From Arthrobacter zhangbolii (lineage in GTDB: Bacteria; Actinomycetota; Actinomycetes; Actinomycetales; Micrococcaceae): 64,000 bases of DNA. The notes under the pieces are model-generated. The model made no database searches. It was not told the DNA's origin and was given only the letters and a program-made list of their open reading frames with translations. Made by a program: the position numbers and the translations under genes. Shown here piece by piece: positions 6,571 to 25,275 of the stretch; the first letter of the stretch is position 1; every line of letters starts with the position of its first letter. Location: positions 1,488,001-1,552,000 of the forward strand of contig NZ_CP094984.1 of the NCBI RefSeq assembly GCF_022869865.1. Reading direction: 5' to 3'.

Positions 6571-6918
6571 CTACCACATAGTGGCGAGGGCGATGTTGAC
6601 AATCGTGAGGATGCCGACGCTGTTGGCGAGCCCGGCGGAGACCTTTTCGTCCTTCTTGTAGCGGCGCTGTCCGATGAAGGCGAGCACTGCGATGACCAGG
6701 GCGATGAGCAGCTTGATGCCGACCTTCATGTGGTTGACGTCGCCGTCACCCATTTCGTTGACGGCCACCAGAGCAAGGCCCGTGACCAGCTGCAGCAGGG
6801 CACCGTGGAACTGGCCGGGCAGGACCGTGGGGTTCTTTATCCGGGCGAACCAGAGGCCGACGATGATCGCGGCGCCGAGGATGTGCAGGAAGACAAGGAA
6901 GCTGTGAAGGATATCCAT
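6571..6918 (-). CDS. Small four-helix membrane protein, CopD/DUF2269-like
   Basis: A 115-residue protein with about four transmembrane helices: residues 4-24, 38-55, 65-84 and 94-113. The first helix carries HSFLVFLHILGAAIIVG, whose LHILGAAI-V-G pattern recalls CopD/DUF2269-type 4-TM proteins that can bind heme or copper; this resemblance is by eye only. The second half has a conserved-looking HMKVGIKLL. The start at ATG 6918 lacks an ideal SD. Upstream at 6982-6998 is a dyad almost identical to the three in front of cydA, suggesting shared control by the BlaI-like repressor. Function unknown. Confidence 0.75.
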   Translation of the reverse strand: MDILHSFLVFLHILGAAIIVGLWFARIKNPTVLPGQFHGALLQLVTGLALVAVNEMGDGDVNHMKVGIKLLIALVIAVLAFIGQRRYKKDEKVSAGLANSVGILTIVNIALATMW

Positions 6919-6981
6919 GCCTTAACTTTACCGACAAGCTGTCGGCTCCTTTGACCACACCGGCAGCACGGGCGGTAACTT

Positions 6982-6998
6982 TTCTACAACATGTAGAG
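6982..6998. promoter_or_regulatory. BlaI-type dyad (TTCTAC-N5-GTAGAg) upstream of the 4-TM gene
   Basis: TTCTAC-AACAT-GTAGAG lies 64-80 bases upstream of the 4-TM membrane gene. It matches 11 of 12 arm positions of the three perfect TTCTAC-N5-GTAGAA dyads at 23566-23638. A wider imperfect symmetry extends to 6977-7004 (AACTTT...AAAGTT). It is therefore a candidate fourth operator for the BlaI-like protein. Confidence 0.6.
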
Positions 6999-10518: not shown

Positions 10519-10579
10519 AAGTGTAATGAGAAACACCAGTCACAACCGTCAGTTCCGTTTCACGGAACCGTTTTAACTG

Positions 10580-21155: not shown

Positions 21156-22103
21156 ATGTGCACAGGCATCAGGTTTACAGACGGTAGCGGCCACCTCTAT
21201 TTCGCACGCAACCTTGATTGGACCAGCGACTTCGGGGAGCAGGTGGTGCTGACGCCCACCGGGTATGCCACGAAGTCGCCGTTTGGGGCTGTACCGCAAA
21301 TCCGGCACGCCGTCATGGGGATGGGCATCGTGCAGGAGGACACACCGCTCTACTTCGACTGCGGCAATGACGCAGGCCTCGCCGTCGGCGGCCTTAATTT
21401 CCCGGGGTATGCGCAGTACGCGCCGGGGCCGGTTGAGGGTGCGACGAATGTTGCGGCGTTTGAGTTCCCGCTCTGGGTTGCCTCGCAGTTCACCACCGTA
21501 GACGAGGTTGAAGCCGCGCTGCAGAACGTCGCGATTGTCGACAGGCCGATCAATGACAAGTATCCGAGTTCTCTGCTGCACTGGCTGATTGCCGATAAGG
21601 ACCGCGCCATTGTTGTCGAATACACGAGCGAGGGCATGCAGGTCTTCCATGACGACGTCGACGTCCTGGCAAACCAGCCCGGTTTCAACTGGCACCACGA
21701 GAACCTCCGCAATTACCTCAACGCGTCTCCCGACTTCCCGGAAGAGGTGGTGCTCAATCAGGCGCATCTGGCGCCGTTTGGGTCCGGCTCGCTCATGCGG
21801 GGTATCCCGGGTGACTACTACTCGCCGTCCCGGTTTGTGCGTGCCGCCTACGTCAACGCACATTACCCGCAGAAGACCACCGAGGAGGAGAACGTCAGCC
21901 GCGCGTTCCACACCCTGCAGCAGGTCGCGATGGTGGAAGGAAGCGCGGCCATGGGTTCCGGGGAATTCGAGAAGACCACGTACACCGGTCTCTTCTCATC
22001 CCGGACCATGACCTACTACTGGAACACCTACGACGATCCGGCGATCCAGAGCGTGGCCATGGCCGACCACAAGGCCCAGGGAACGGACCTGGTGATCGTC
22101 TAA
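21156..22103 (+). CDS. Choloylglycine hydrolase / penicillin V acylase family (C59) enzyme
   Basis: Ntn-hydrolase that cleaves linear amides using an N-terminal Cys exposed by removal of Met. In the 315-residue protein C2, R18 and D21 match the family catalytic set (CTGIRF, ARNLDW). N81 lies in GGLNFPGYAQY, NLRNYL supplies the later Asn, and SRFVRAAY the Arg. There is no signal peptide, so it is cytosolic. Bile-salt hydrolases, penicillin V acylases and some acyl-homoserine-lactone acylases share this fold; substrate is not predictable here, and bile salts are unlikely in a soil-type bacterium. ATG 21156 has AGGAAG eight bases upstream. It is a single-gene unit, convergent with the M56 gene. 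Confidence 0.88.
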   Translation: MCTGIRFTDGSGHLYFARNLDWTSDFGEQVVLTPTGYATKSPFGAVPQIRHAVMGMGIVQEDTPLYFDCGNDAGLAVGGLNFPGYAQYAPGPVEGATNVAAFEFPLWVASQFTTVDEVEAALQNVAIVDRPINDKYPSSLLHWLIADKDRAIVVEYTSEGMQVFHDDVDVLANQPGFNWHHENLRNYLNASPDFPEEVVLNQAHLAPFGSGSLMRGIPGDYYSPSRFVRAAYVNAHYPQKTTEEENVSRAFHTLQQVAMVEGSAAMGSGEFEKTTYTGLFSSRTMTYYWNTYDDPAIQSVAMADHKAQGTDLVIV

Positions 22104-22127: not shown

Positions 22128-23111
22128 TTAGTCCAGCAGGCCCGGAGCGACCAGCAGGGTGGTCGGCACGGCGAGCAGGAGGATGGCGAGCACGAGGATG
22201 CCCACGCGGAGGTAGTAAGGAAGCGGAGGCCGCGGGGTCAACAGCCGGCTGAGCCGTCCGGCGGTACTCAGTGGCTCAAGGTTGTCCGGGCCGCCGAGCG
22301 GCATGGGAGACTCCGCGGGAACCCGGTGCTCCGGGTTTCCCGAGGAGGCGTCCGAAGGCTGTGTCCCGGATCCGACAATAGCCACGGCACGAACCAGGAC
22401 CTCCCGGTCCACCTGCTGCAGCGCCTGGTCATCCGCGAGCATCTCGATGAGTTCGTTGACCGAGCGCTGGGCCAGCAGGGAAGTCGGCAGCCAGGGCAGC
22501 GCGGCACGCCAGGCCGCAAAGGCCCACAACAGCAGATGGTGGTGCTGGACCAGGTGTGCCCGCTCGTGTGTCAATACGGCGGAGAGCTCCTGCGGGGAGA
22601 GCATGTTCAGCAGTCCGTCAGACAGGACGGTTACGGAGCGTGCGCCGCCGGGAAGGCAGTACGCCACCGGCGTCGGATGCTGGATAACAAGGGTGGCGGG
22701 CGTGTCCGCGGAAGGAGAGCTGAGCAGGTTCAGCATGTCGCGGTGTCGCCGGCGGCCGCGCAGGATGCGGTAGTAGGTAAGCCATAGGGTGAACACCAGG
22801 TGCACGCTGAGCAGGGCGGCAGCGCTGAGGGCAAAAACATGGACCAGTCCCAGCGTGCTTGCCGGAGCGCGGTCCACCAGGATGTGCCACAGGCCCTGCA
22901 GGCCGTCGATCAGGTTGTCACCGAGGGGCTCCAGCCCCCAGGTCAGCATGGCGCCGATCATGGACAGTCCGCCGGCGAGGGCTATTGCCTGCCATAGGAC
23001 CATGGCAGTGAACGGCGAGCGGGCAGGCCACTTGGCCCGCGAGAGCAGAACCGGCACGGGCCAGGCCAGCAGCAATGCCAGCGCGGCCAGCGCGTACGAG
23101 GTCCAGAACAC
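22128..23111 (-). CDS. M56-family (BlaR1-like) membrane metallopeptidase
   Basis: A 327-residue membrane protease with helices near residues 3-23, 34-57, 88-112, about 187-205 and 305-325. The zinc-protease motif is H182-E183-x-x-H186 (LTHERAHLVQ). It lacks the penicillin-binding sensor domain of BlaR1/MecR1, as in other short actinobacterial M56 proteins paired with BlaI. Its expected role is to inactivate the adjacent BlaI-like repressor on a signal that is not known. GTG 23111 lies 7 bases after the blaI stop with only a weak SD; upstream in-frame ATGs lie inside blaI. Co-transcribed with blaI. Confidence 0.87.
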   Translation of the reverse strand: MFWTSYALAALALLLAWPVPVLLSRAKWPARSPFTAMVLWQAIALAGGLSMIGAMLTWGLEPLGDNLIDGLQGLWHILVDRAPASTLGLVHVFALSAAALLSVHLVFTLWLTYYRILRGRRRHRDMLNLLSSPSADTPATLVIQHPTPVAYCLPGGARSVTVLSDGLLNMLSPQELSAVLTHERAHLVQHHHLLLWAFAAWRAALPWLPTSLLAQRSVNELIEMLADDQALQQVDREVLVRAVAIVGSGTQPSDASSGNPEHRVPAESPMPLGGPDNLEPLSTAGRLSRLLTPRPPLPYYLRVGILVLAILLLAVPTTLLVAPGLLD

Positions 23112-23118
23112 CCGGTGC

Positions 23119-23481
23119 TCAGGCGCCCAGCAGCCTGCGCAGCATCTCTGCCTCGGTCTCGGAGACGGAGCCGACAAACCGTGCCAGCACGGCCTCGCGG
23201 TCATTCGCGGTTCCCAGTGCCTCATGCATCAGTTCCGCCGTATGTTCGGCACGTGTTGTCACTGCCCGGTAGCGGTGCGGGCGGGTGTCCCGTTCACGCT
23301 CAACGAGCCCTTTCTTCTCCAGCCGCGAAAGCACGGTCAGCACTGTGGTGACTGCCAGGCCCTTGCTGTCCGTTTCTTCGCGCCGGGCAAGCAGCTCGCG
23401 AAGTTCATTGGCGGATGCTGCCTCGGCTGATTCCCAAAGCAGGTCCATCATTGCCCGTTCCAGTTCACCGAGCGTAGCCAT
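23119..23481 (-). CDS. blaI: BlaI/MecI/CopY-family transcriptional repressor
   Basis: A 120-residue winged-helix repressor. The N-terminus LGELERAMMDLLWESAEAASANELRELL, the recognition region GLAVTTVLTVLSRLEKKGLVERER and the dimerising C-terminus match the BlaI/MecI/CopY family. In paired systems the M56 protease, here the next gene, relieves repression. ATG 23481 is preceded by AGAAGGACAG. The gene is divergent from cydA; the 186-base gap holds three perfect TTCTAC-N5-GTAGAA dyads, so I infer it regulates itself and cytochrome bd, not a beta-lactamase. A hairpin (23512-23532) sits in its 5' leader. Confidence 0.9.
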   Translation of the reverse strand: MATLGELERAMMDLLWESAEAASANELRELLARREETDSKGLAVTTVLTVLSRLEKKGLVERERDTRPHRYRAVTTRAEHTAELMHEALGTANDREAVLARFVGSVSETEAEMLRRLLGA

Positions 23482-23565
23482 GTCTGTCCTTCTTTTTTTC
23501 GAGACCCCTGTGGACCCCGGCATTCCGGGTCCAGACTTACTAATGTACCGTGTTTGCGCCGTTGG

Positions 23566-23582
23566 TTCTACATCACGTAGAA
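23566..23582. promoter_or_regulatory. Operator 1, TTCTAC-N5-GTAGAA
   Basis: Perfect 6+6 dyad with spacer ATCAC between blaI and cydA. On the minus strand a TACATT hexamer (23542-23547) would be a suitable blaI -10, and this dyad then overlaps the corresponding -35, consistent with autoregulation. Confidence 0.75.
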
Positions 23583-23597
23583 ATCTTGTCAGAGTTG

Positions 23598-23614
23598 TTC
23601 TACGCTTTGTAGAA
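23598..23614. promoter_or_regulatory. Operator 2, TTCTAC-N5-GTAGAA
   Basis: Perfect dyad with spacer GCTTT, centred 32 bp from operator 1, about three helical turns. A TTGTCA at 23586-23591 could be a cydA -35, which would place this dyad across the promoter. Confidence 0.75.
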
Positions 23615-23621
23615 GTCAGTC

Positions 23622-23638
23622 TTCTACGTCCTGTAGAA
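23622..23638. promoter_or_regulatory. Operator 3, TTCTAC-N5-GTAGAA
   Basis: Perfect dyad with spacer GTCCT, centred 24 bp from operator 2 and ending 29 bases before the cydA start codon. Only the arms are conserved among the three dyads, as expected of a protein-binding site. Confidence 0.75.
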
Positions 23639-23667
23639 GTCATAGCTCTATTGAAGGACGAGATAGC

Positions 23668-25275
23668 GTGGAAGCACTGGATATTGCCCGGTGGCAGTTC
23701 GGCATCACCACCGTTTACCACTTCCTCATGGTGCCGCTCACTATTGGCCTGGGCCTGGTCGTGGCAGCGTTGCAGACCGCCTGGGTGCGTACGGGTAAAG
23801 AGGAATACCTCAGGATGACGAAGTTCTGGGGCAAGCTCTTCCTCATCAACTTCATCCTCGGCCTGGCTACCGGGCTCGTGCAGGAATTCCAGTTCGGTAT
23901 GGCCTGGAGCGAGTACAGCCGGTTCGTCGGCGACGTGTTCGGTGCCCCCCTGGCACTGGAATCCCTGCTGGCCTTCTTCACTGAGTCGGTGTTCCTGGGG
24001 CTGTGGATCTTCGGCTGGAAACGGCTGCCGAAGAAGGTTCACCTGGCCACCATCTGGATCACCACCCTGGCCTCGATGCTCTCGGCCTACTTCATCCTGG
24101 CCGCGAACTCCTGGATGCAGCACCCCGTGGGCGTGGAGATGGTGGACGGACGTCCGGTCATGAATGACATCTGGGCTGTCCTGACGAACAACACCCTGCT
24201 GGTTGCCTTCCCCCACACCATCTTCGGCGCGTTCGCCGTCGCGGGCGGGTTCCTGCTCGGCATCGCCTGGTACCACCTCTGGAAGCGGCGCCGCGACGGC
24301 ATCGACACCGTGGATGACCGCGGCTACGTGGTGGTGGGGGAGCGCCCCGAAACCGGCCGTGACAAGACCGACCACGCTGTCTGGCTGCGTTCCCTGCGCA
24401 TTGGTGCCGCCGTCGCCGTAGTGGCCTTTGCCGGCGTCGCGGTCAGCGGTGACCTGCAGGGCAAGCTGATGTTTGAACAGCAGCCGATGAAGATGGCTGC
24501 CGCTGAAGCCGCCTGCCATGACGGCACCGGATTCTCCGTCCTGTCCATCGGCGACCCCGGCGCCGTGAACTGCGAAGACGTGGACACGCTGATCGAGATC
24601 CCGGGCATGCTTTCCTTCCTTGCCAACGGAGATTTCGATACCGAAATCCGCGGCGTGAACACCCTTCTGGAGGAGTACGCGGACGCCTACGGCACCCATC
24701 TGCCGGACGATGAAATGTACGGCACCAACGCCGGCGCCGAAATCGACTACACCCCGAACTTCGCTGTGACCTACTGGGGCTTCCGGATCATGATCGGGTT
24801 CGGCGGGATCGCAGCCGTGGCCGCGGCCTTCGCCCTCTGGGTGGTCCGCAAGGGCACCGTGCCCGAGTCCAAGTGGCTCATGCGGCTGGCCGTCTTCGGC
24901 ATCCTGGCACCCTTCGGCGCCAACTCCGCCGGCTGGATCTTCACCGAAATGGGCCGCCAGCCCTTTGTGGTGGCACCGAACCCCACCGGAGTGGACGGCG
25001 TCTTTATGTTCACCGCAGCTGCGGTCTCACCGGGCGTAAACATCGGCGAGCTGCTCTTCTCCGTCAGCGCCTTCACCCTGGTGTACCTGGCACTGCTGAT
25101 CGTTGAGGTGCGCCTGCTCTTCAAGTTCGTGCGCGGCGGCGTTCCCGCAGCCATGCCGGGCCTGCTGCACGGGGACGACGACGAGGGCAGCAGCGGCGGC
25201 CTGGACTCGGCCGGCGGCGATCCCGACGGCGGCCCCGAAAAGAAGAAGGACGATGTCCTCGACTTCGCCTATTGA
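23668..25275 (+). CDS. cydA: Cytochrome bd ubiquinol/menaquinol oxidase subunit I
   Basis: Heme-bearing subunit of cytochrome bd, a high-affinity, proton-pump-independent terminal oxidase. The 535-residue membrane protein begins ALDIARWQFGITTVYHFLMVPLT, with H18 matching the heme b595 ligand. EFQFGMAWSEYSRFVGDVFG, the quinol-loop segment EQQPMKMAAAEA and TEMGRQPFVV are family landmarks. A hydrophilic Gly/Asp tail ends the protein. The start is GTG 23668 with GAAGGACG upstream. Menaquinol is the likely substrate in this lineage. First gene of cydA-cydB-cydDC, with three BlaI-type dyads in front. Confidence 0.97.
   Translation: MEALDIARWQFGITTVYHFLMVPLTIGLGLVVAALQTAWVRTGKEEYLRMTKFWGKLFLINFILGLATGLVQEFQFGMAWSEYSRFVGDVFGAPLALESLLAFFTESVFLGLWIFGWKRLPKKVHLATIWITTLASMLSAYFILAANSWMQHPVGVEMVDGRPVMNDIWAVLTNNTLLVAFPHTIFGAFAVAGGFLLGIAWYHLWKRRRDGIDTVDDRGYVVVGERPETGRDKTDHAVWLRSLRIGAAVAVVAFAGVAVSGDLQGKLMFEQQPMKMAAAEAACHDGTGFSVLSIGDPGAVNCEDVDTLIEIPGMLSFLANGDFDTEIRGVNTLLEEYADAYGTHLPDDEMYGTNAGAEIDYTPNFAVTYWGFRIMIGFGGIAAVAAAFALWVVRKGTVPESKWLMRLAVFGILAPFGANSAGWIFTEMGRQPFVVAPNPTGVDGVFMFTAAAVSPGVNIGELLFSVSAFTLVYLALLIVEVRLLFKFVRGGVPAAMPGLLHGDDDEGSSGGLDSAGGDPDGGPEKKKDDVLDFAY

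What the first reader, a model, noticed from the sequence alone, without database searches (positions are those of the whole stretch)
23566..23638. Three perfect TTCTAC-N5-GTAGAA dyads link a BlaI/M56 pair to cytochrome bd
Seen: three exact 6+6 dyads with unrelated spacers, centres 32 and 24 bp apart, fill the gap between divergent blaI and cydA. Known: BlaI/MecI/CopY repressors bind dyads with TAC/GTA cores and are released by M56 proteases. Inference: this pair controls a respiratory oxidase and not a beta-lactamase. The short M56 protein has no penicillin sensor domain, so its signal must differ (redox, heme, envelope stress).
Basis: partly seen in the sequence, partly recalled or inferred. 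Interest (0 to 1): 0.75.

Follow-up and report, generated by a model that had tools for sequence, protein, structure and literature searches.

The report
BlaI-type switch for aerobic respiration genes
A gene switch related to the one that turns on penicillin resistance in Staphylococcus seems, in this soil bacterium and many relatives, to control the machinery of breathing (oxidases, heme and cytochrome assembly, ATP synthase), through DNA signposts that are nearly unchanged across genera.

Summary
In detail: three perfect TTCTAC-N5-GTAGAA dyads (23566, 23598, 23622) lie between divergent blaI-M56 and cydAB in an Arthrobacter genome. All 110 blaI loci examined (overlapping genome sets) have an exact dyad upstream of blaI; arms are fixed, spacers vary. 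Dyads also recur upstream of hemQ-hemH-hemC, cytochrome c maturation genes, ctaE/qcr, ctaCD and the atp operon: 10-19 of 20 BlaI-bearing genera by target, within 1 mismatch (ctaC: 2), and 19 of 19 exact at cydA; 59 permuted palindromes reach at most 3 within 2 mismatches. Seven genomes without BlaI hold 1 exact dyad in total, against a mean of 5.3 in 70 with an orthologue. cydAB on a different contig from blaI keeps its dyads. Mismatches at ctaC and atp are themselves conserved, suggesting graded affinity. Best explanation: BlaI represses an oxidative-phosphorylation regulon, relieved by an M56-type protease that lacks a penicillin sensor; signal unknown. Precedent: Mycobacterium tuberculosis BlaI is reported to bind cytochrome bd and ATP synthase promoters, and its BlaR lacks the sensor. 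A new, wider variant of a known kind. Binding and expression are untested.

The parts
23566..23582 (.). dyad 1, TTCTACATCACGTAGAA, blaI-proximal (probable autoregulation)
   Evidence: exact match; a third dyad is present in 67 of 80 named loci
23598..23614 (.). dyad 2, TTCTACGCTTTGTAGAA, cydA-proximal pair
   Evidence: first pair spacing 24-26 bp in 77 of the 79 loci with two or more dyads
23622..23638 (.). dyad 3, TTCTACGTCCTGTAGAA, cydA-proximal pair
23119..23481 (-). blaI, BlaI/MecI-family repressor, 120 aa plus stop
   Evidence: PF03965 77 bits; frame checked; only Penicillinase_R hit in the genome; closest solved chain 2g9w_A E 1.4e-18
22128..23111 (-). M56/M48-like membrane zinc protease without sensor domain, GTG start, 327 aa
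   Evidence: HERAH at residue 182 ... E223xxAD227; four hydrophobic segments, the last at the C terminus; Pfam M48 40.9 bits, M56 23.9 bits (cut-off 31)
23668..25275 (+). cydA, cytochrome bd subunit I
   Evidence: PF01654 504.5 bits
25375..26391 (+). cydB, cytochrome bd subunit II
   Evidence: PF02322 354.8 bits
26388..29816 (+). cydDC-like ABC exporter as one 1142-aa frame
   Evidence: two ABC_membrane and two ABC_tran stretches; the name cydDC rests on position
6982..6998 (.). near-dyad TTCTACAACATGTAGAG upstream of the small membrane protein 6571-6918 (-), a second candidate target in the window
   Evidence: 1 mismatch; exact dyads upstream of its homologue in G032, G047 and G058

Best explanation
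The dyads are BlaI operators. A BlaI dimer sits on each dyad and represses its own blaI-M56 operon and, from two or three strong sites, cydABDC. The same BlaI binds single sites at heme-synthesis, cytochrome c maturation, bc1-aa3 oxidase and ATP synthase promoters, some with conserved mismatches, so that release is graded. The membrane M56-type protease cleaves BlaI when electron flow, membrane energisation or cofactor supply is inadequate, which raises the capacity of the whole chain. Shown by sequence: sites, genes, conservation, co-occurrence with BlaI. Inferred: binding, repression, cleavage. The signal is unknown.
For: All 110 blaI loci have an exact dyad within 260 bp upstream of blaI (the two sets of loci overlap in genomes). 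In 20 genera with a BlaI orthologue: cydA 19 of 19 exact (G012 has no CydA); ctaC 19 of 20 within 2 mismatches; atp 15 of 20, hemQ 14 of 20 and ctaE 10 of 20 within 1; ccdA/resA 11 of 20 within 1. 59 permuted palindromes: at most 3 of 20 within 2 mismatches for any target. Exact dyads: mean 5.3 in 70 genomes with an orthologue, 1 in total in the 7 without BlaI. cydAB on another contig than blaI keeps two dyads 24-25 bp apart in G004 and G035. In genus g6, G061 has blaI-M56/dyad/cydAB, while G005 and G036 have no BlaI and no exact dyad (G036 keeps CydA); in g15, G044 has the module, while G014 and G068 lack BlaI, CydA and exact dyads. The 40 exact dyads read fall into 12 gene classes, led by hemQ (10) and flavohemoglobin (6). 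In 20 of 20 chosen blaI orthologues from seven other families a dyad of this type lies upstream of blaI; permuted controls reach at most 4. A Clostridium BlaI has a motif of inverted GTCTAT repeats 5 nt apart (PMC8457756, passages).
Against: No binding or expression data. Even within 2 mismatches no dyad was found in BlaI+ genera for hemQ in 6 of 20, resA/ccdA in 8, ctaE in 7, atp in 4 and ctaC in 1. Three genomes with only a 39-41% BlaI relative have an exact dyad at cydA alone. One of 7 BlaI-less genomes (G033) has a 2-mismatch match in the atp window. Several sites have no evident link with respiration (SWIM/SNF2 helicase, MATE/DUF308-like neighbourhood, PPOX-like proteins; own-genome sites L020 and L024), and some exact sites could not be assigned (L164, L166, L395, L396, L398, L403). 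The protease scores below the Pfam M56 cut-off.
Confidence: 0.75

Rival explanations
1. BlaI controls only its own operon and cydAB; the other dyads belong to a different regulator with a similar site.
For: Most of the other sites are single and often imperfect, whereas cyd here has three perfect ones.
Against: Only one Penicillinase_R protein is found in this genome; exact dyads follow BlaI presence; G012 has no CydA but has BlaI and 15 exact dyads.
Confidence: 0.1
2. The pair is a classical beta-lactam responder and respiration is a side effect, as suggested for mycobacteria.
For: Family names; M. tuberculosis BlaI is also the repressor of a beta-lactamase (PMC5473688, passages).
Against: No penicillin-sensor domain; I recognised no beta-lactamase beside the own-genome sites that were read, but no beta-lactamase search was run.
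Confidence: 0.07
3. BlaI acts at these sites without proteolysis (ligand- or metal-controlled, as CopY), and the M56-type protein is only a neighbour.
For: CopY-type relatives respond to metal (recalled); dyads lie near copper-related genes in some genera.
Against: An M56 homologue is present in 80 of 80 named blaI loci, and HExxH...ExxAD is present in 98 of 100 homologues, the other two being shorter frames of 171 and 220 residues.
Confidence: 0.08

Closest known systems
Mycobacterium tuberculosis BlaI (Rv1846c) / BlaR (Rv1845c)
   Same: BlaI is the nearest solved relative (2g9w_A; that this chain is Rv1846c is recalled); reported binding at cytochrome bd and ATP synthase promoters; BlaR without sensor domain (PMC5473688, passages; the primary paper, Sala 2009, is not held).
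   Different: Here blaI-M56 is divergent from cydAB, with three perfect dyads. The predicted regulon adds heme synthesis, cytochrome c maturation and bc1-aa3 oxidase; no beta-lactamase link was seen (none was searched for).
Staphylococcus aureus BlaI/BlaR1 and MecI/MecR1
   Same: Same repressor family (MecI, E 9e-4); dyad with TAC/GTA core (recalled); HExxH and ExxxD protease motifs as in BlaR1 (PMC9834060, passages).
   Different: No beta-lactam sensor domain; different target genes.
Clostridium thermocellum BlaI_0696 / BlaI_1845
   Same: BlaI_0696 motif of inverted GTCTAT repeats 5 nt apart, in pairs at targets, from DAP-seq; EMSA with single-repeat probes, modest for 0696 (PMC8457756, passages).
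   Different: Regulons of three and one operons, interpreted there as antibiotic response; the words cytochrome and ATP synthase do not occur in that text.
Rex control of cydABCD in Streptomyces (recalled)
   Same: A repressor of cytochrome bd in actinobacteria.
   Different: No Rex-like site near cydA here at up to 3 mismatches (only match at 10526).

Membership tests
BlaI/MecI repressors | Penicillinase_R winged-helix domain | tested here: met
   PF03965 77 bits, cut-off 22.6
BlaI/MecI repressors | Dyad operators with TAC/GTA core at its own promoter | tested here: met
   core recalled for S. aureus, similar motif for C. thermocellum
BlaI/MecI repressors | Binds the dyads as a dimer | not testable with these tools
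   needs EMSA or footprint
BlaR1-type M56 sensors | Zinc site HExxH...ExxxD | tested here: met
   the zinc-site residues are invariant in 17 of 17 rows of A2
BlaR1-type M56 sensors | Curated Pfam M56 cut-off | tested here: not met
   23.9 bits against 31; M48 40.9 bits against 20.3
BlaR1-type M56 sensors | Penicillin-binding sensor domain after the last helix | tested here: not met
   protein ends with the fourth hydrophobic segment at residue 327
BlaR1-type M56 sensors | BlaR1 fold | not tested
   structure prediction never started, machine busy; no PDB sequence match at E up to 1
bla/mec resistance operons | Controls a beta-lactamase or PBP2a | tested here: inconclusive
   targets seen are cydAB and respiratory genes; no beta-lactamase search was run
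Cytochrome bd operon | CydA and CydB | tested here: met
   PF01654 and PF02322

The most novel reading that the evidence does not exclude
BlaI with a sensor-less M56-type protease is an ancestral actinobacterial system that monitors the respiratory chain itself and sets, by graded operator affinity, the level of the whole oxidative-phosphorylation machinery with its heme and cytochrome supply; beta-lactamase control would be a late side branch. The membrane protease would read membrane energy, quinone or heme state, perhaps through the Cys invariant in the sampled proteins (residue 152).
Probability: 0.4. Interest if true: 0.85.

Novelty: new variant of a known kind. Interest (0 to 1): 0.68.

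Why it matters
It recasts a regulator named for penicillin resistance as a candidate master control of aerobic respiration in a large actinobacterial group. It gives a ready test set of operators with a predicted order of strength, and a defined membrane protein whose signal can be sought. It could also explain why mycobacterial BlaI is reported at energy genes and why its partner has no beta-lactam sensor.

Tried and rejected
Chance palindromes: rejected by shuffles, reversed controls and 59 permuted palindromes. Counting loose matches in the own genome alone: rejected, the control pattern gives more. A Rex site at cydA: none near. Consensus sigma-70 promoter scan of 23400-23720: nothing found, so operator-promoter geometry is not argued. 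Choloylglycine hydrolase 21156-22103 as part of the module: rejected, 0 of 80 named loci have it. Own-genome sucC (1 mismatch) and ctaB (2 mismatches) sites: not counted as established; I saw an exact dyad at ctaB in G012, and sucC was not tested elsewhere. Rows dropped before counting: partial or second hits L236 (CtaC), L322-L326 (CydA; L322 is a 28-residue fragment in G033, the others partial second copies), L439 and other second CcdA copies.

Literature: the primary paper (Sala 2009) is not held, so its regulon is known here only through papers that cite it. Searches for BlaI with cytochrome bd, Rv1846c and ATP synthase, respiration, cydA, heme biosynthesis, cydB, qcrC/ctaC, for penicillinase repressor with cytochrome bd, and for Arthrobacter with cydA listed no paper that, from titles, abstract openings and the passages read, describes this wider regulon. 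Most listed papers were not opened, and most subscription journals are not in the library.

Full report
What is there. The window lies in an Arthrobacter genome (inferred: the named relatives are Arthrobacter and close genera; the genome itself is unnamed). Between blaI (ATG at 23481, minus strand) and cydA (GTG at 23668) lie three perfect dyads. BlaI carries PF03965 and is followed by a membrane protease; cydA is followed by cydB and a fused ABC exporter. BlaI is the only Penicillinase_R protein found in the genome.

Conservation at the locus. I examined 110 blaI loci (30 from whole genomes, 80 named; the two sets overlap in genomes). All have at least one exact dyad within 260 bp upstream of blaI, and 104 have a divergent cydA in the stretch held. 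Six do not (L034, L038, L039, L043, L056, L116) and show one dyad each; five of these stretches hold only about 1.5 kb of flank and L116 lies near a contig end. L034 and L116 share a contig length and are probably one assembly. Among the 80 named loci 67 have three dyads, 12 two and 1 one within one mismatch in 350 bp, and the cydA-proximal pair is 24-26 bp apart in 77 of 79. Arms are fixed while spacers differ.

Beyond the locus, own genome. The other two exact dyads lie before hemQ-hemH-hemC and between a SWIM/SNF2 gene and a MarR-like gene (my reading). Of the nine one-mismatch sites six lie before resA-ccdA-resB, the atp operon, ctaE-qcrC, sucCD, the membrane protein 6571-6918, and between an ABC gene and sufR-sufB. 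A seventh (L021) lies upstream of a minus-strand stretch with a CopC-like gene (my reading), and two (L020, L024) show no such link. Pfam supports HemQ (as Chlor_dismutase), ferrochelatase, ResB, COX2, COX3, UbiA for CtaB, DsbD_TM and the SucC domains; AtpI and the protein 6571-6918 have no Pfam match. Other names (atpB, qcrC, sufB, trpD and so on) are my reading of the sequences.

Relatives. One search counted exact dyads in 80 genomes but listed places only for some. I fetched 40 of the 41 listed non-blaI places of 11 genomes. My reading: hemQ 10; flavohemoglobin 6 (L168 has Globin, FAD- and NAD-binding domains; the others by similarity); small membrane protein with DUF308-like and MATE-like neighbours 6 (two of these by the MATE-like neighbour only); resA, with a PGAM-like gene first, 3; ctaE/qcrC 3; cydA 2; the 6571-type membrane protein 2; SWIM 2; PPOX-like 2; globin-like 2 (no Pfam match for L202); ABC/sufR 1; copper-related 1. 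Among the first-listed places of further genomes (L150-L166) the same classes recur, CopC-like genes included (Pfam for L151), but L164 and L166 fit none. In G012, which has BlaI but no CydA, the 15 exact dyads lie at blaI, hemQ, ABC/suf, resA, ctaB, 316 bp upstream of ctaC and, by my reading, beside sdhC, SURF1, CopD/CtaG-like, isocitrate lyase, PPOX-like and small-membrane-protein genes; three of them (L395, L396, L403) and one from G008 (L398) could not be assigned.

Controlled test. Twenty BlaI+ genera were compared with seven genomes without a BlaI match at E up to 0.001 and three with only a 39-41% relative. Windows were 400 bp upstream, but 1400 bp for AtpB and up to 1480 bp for CcdA, because the site lies before an upstream gene. 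Best dyad in BlaI+: CydA 19 of 19 exact; HemQ 12 of 20 exact and 14 within 1; AtpB 15 of 20 within 1 and 16 within 2; CtaC 2 of 20 exact and 19 within 2; CtaE 10 of 20 within 1 and 13 within 2; CcdA/ResA 4 of 20 exact, 11 within 1, 12 within 2. Strictly BlaI-less, within 2: CydA 0 of 3, HemQ 0 of 7, CtaC 0 of 6, CtaE 0 of 6, CcdA 0 of 6, AtpB 1 of 7. The three with a distant relative: exact at CydA 3 of 3, none within 2 at the other targets. The 59 permuted palindromes reached at most 3 of 20 within 2 mismatches for any target. CTCTAC-N5-GTAGTA at ctaC recurs in 15 of 20 genera and TTCTAT-N5-GTAGAA at atp in 10 of 20 (counted), so the departures from the perfect site are conserved too.

Co-occurrence. 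Exact dyads average 5.3 in 70 genomes with an orthologue (range 1-15), total 1 in the seven without BlaI and 1 each in the three with a distant one; the reversed control gives 31 against 374 in all 80. The Mann-Whitney p of 6e-6 ignores relatedness.

Wider class. BlaI matches occur in 85 of 148 class genomes. I read 20 chosen orthologues from seven other families. By a looser criterion (CTAC-N5-GTAG within one mismatch, at most four in all) 20 of 20 have a site upstream of blaI, against a mean of 0.8 and at most 4 for 59 permuted arms. Close divergent cydAB occurs in 9, a 27-28% CydA-like gene in 2, a codirectional cydA in 1, and none in the stretch held in 8. In a tree of 52 BlaI rows linkage to cydA needs 7 changes and is clustered.

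Protease. The protein has HERAH and ExxAD, four hydrophobic segments and no extra C-terminal domain. Cys152 is invariant in 17 of 17 proteins from eight families, the own one included. A link to a redox signal is speculation.

Literature (passages only). PMC5473688 states that M. [quoted passage not shown] PMC12565901 reports BlaI binding at the promoter of Rv1303, co-transcribed with the ATP synthase genes. PMC7924339 places blaI in the IdeR regulon and atpE in the predicted BlaI regulon; PMC8265638 names atpH and sigC as members. The kind is therefore known; the breadth and the operator grading are, as far as these searches show, not described.

Verdict. Real, conserved and broader than proposed. 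Repression by BlaI is likely, relief by the protease plausible, and the signal open.

Noticed in passing
window 21156-22103 (+): Choloylglycine hydrolase family gene (PF02275, a family that includes penicillin V acylases, recalled) between parE and M56; absent from 80 of 80 related named loci.
   Followed up: partly
window 6571-6998: Small membrane protein without Pfam match, with a near-dyad upstream; homologues in three other genomes have an exact dyad there.
   Followed up: partly
L189:2097-2489 and homologues: Unnamed small membrane protein with exact dyads upstream in several genera, next to DUF308-like and MATE-like genes: a candidate unknown respiratory factor.
   Followed up: partly
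window 22128-23111, residue 152: Cys in an AYCxP motif of the M56-type protease, invariant in 17 of 17 sampled homologues.
   Followed up: no
L013:4369: Exact dyad between a SWIM/SNF2 helicase gene and a MarR-like gene, also in two other genomes of the genus (L187, L194); no evident link to respiration.
   Followed up: no
L372, L375 against L373, L374: Within one other family two different CydA lineages (46% and about 70% identity to the window's) both sit divergent from blaI with dyads.
   Followed up: partly
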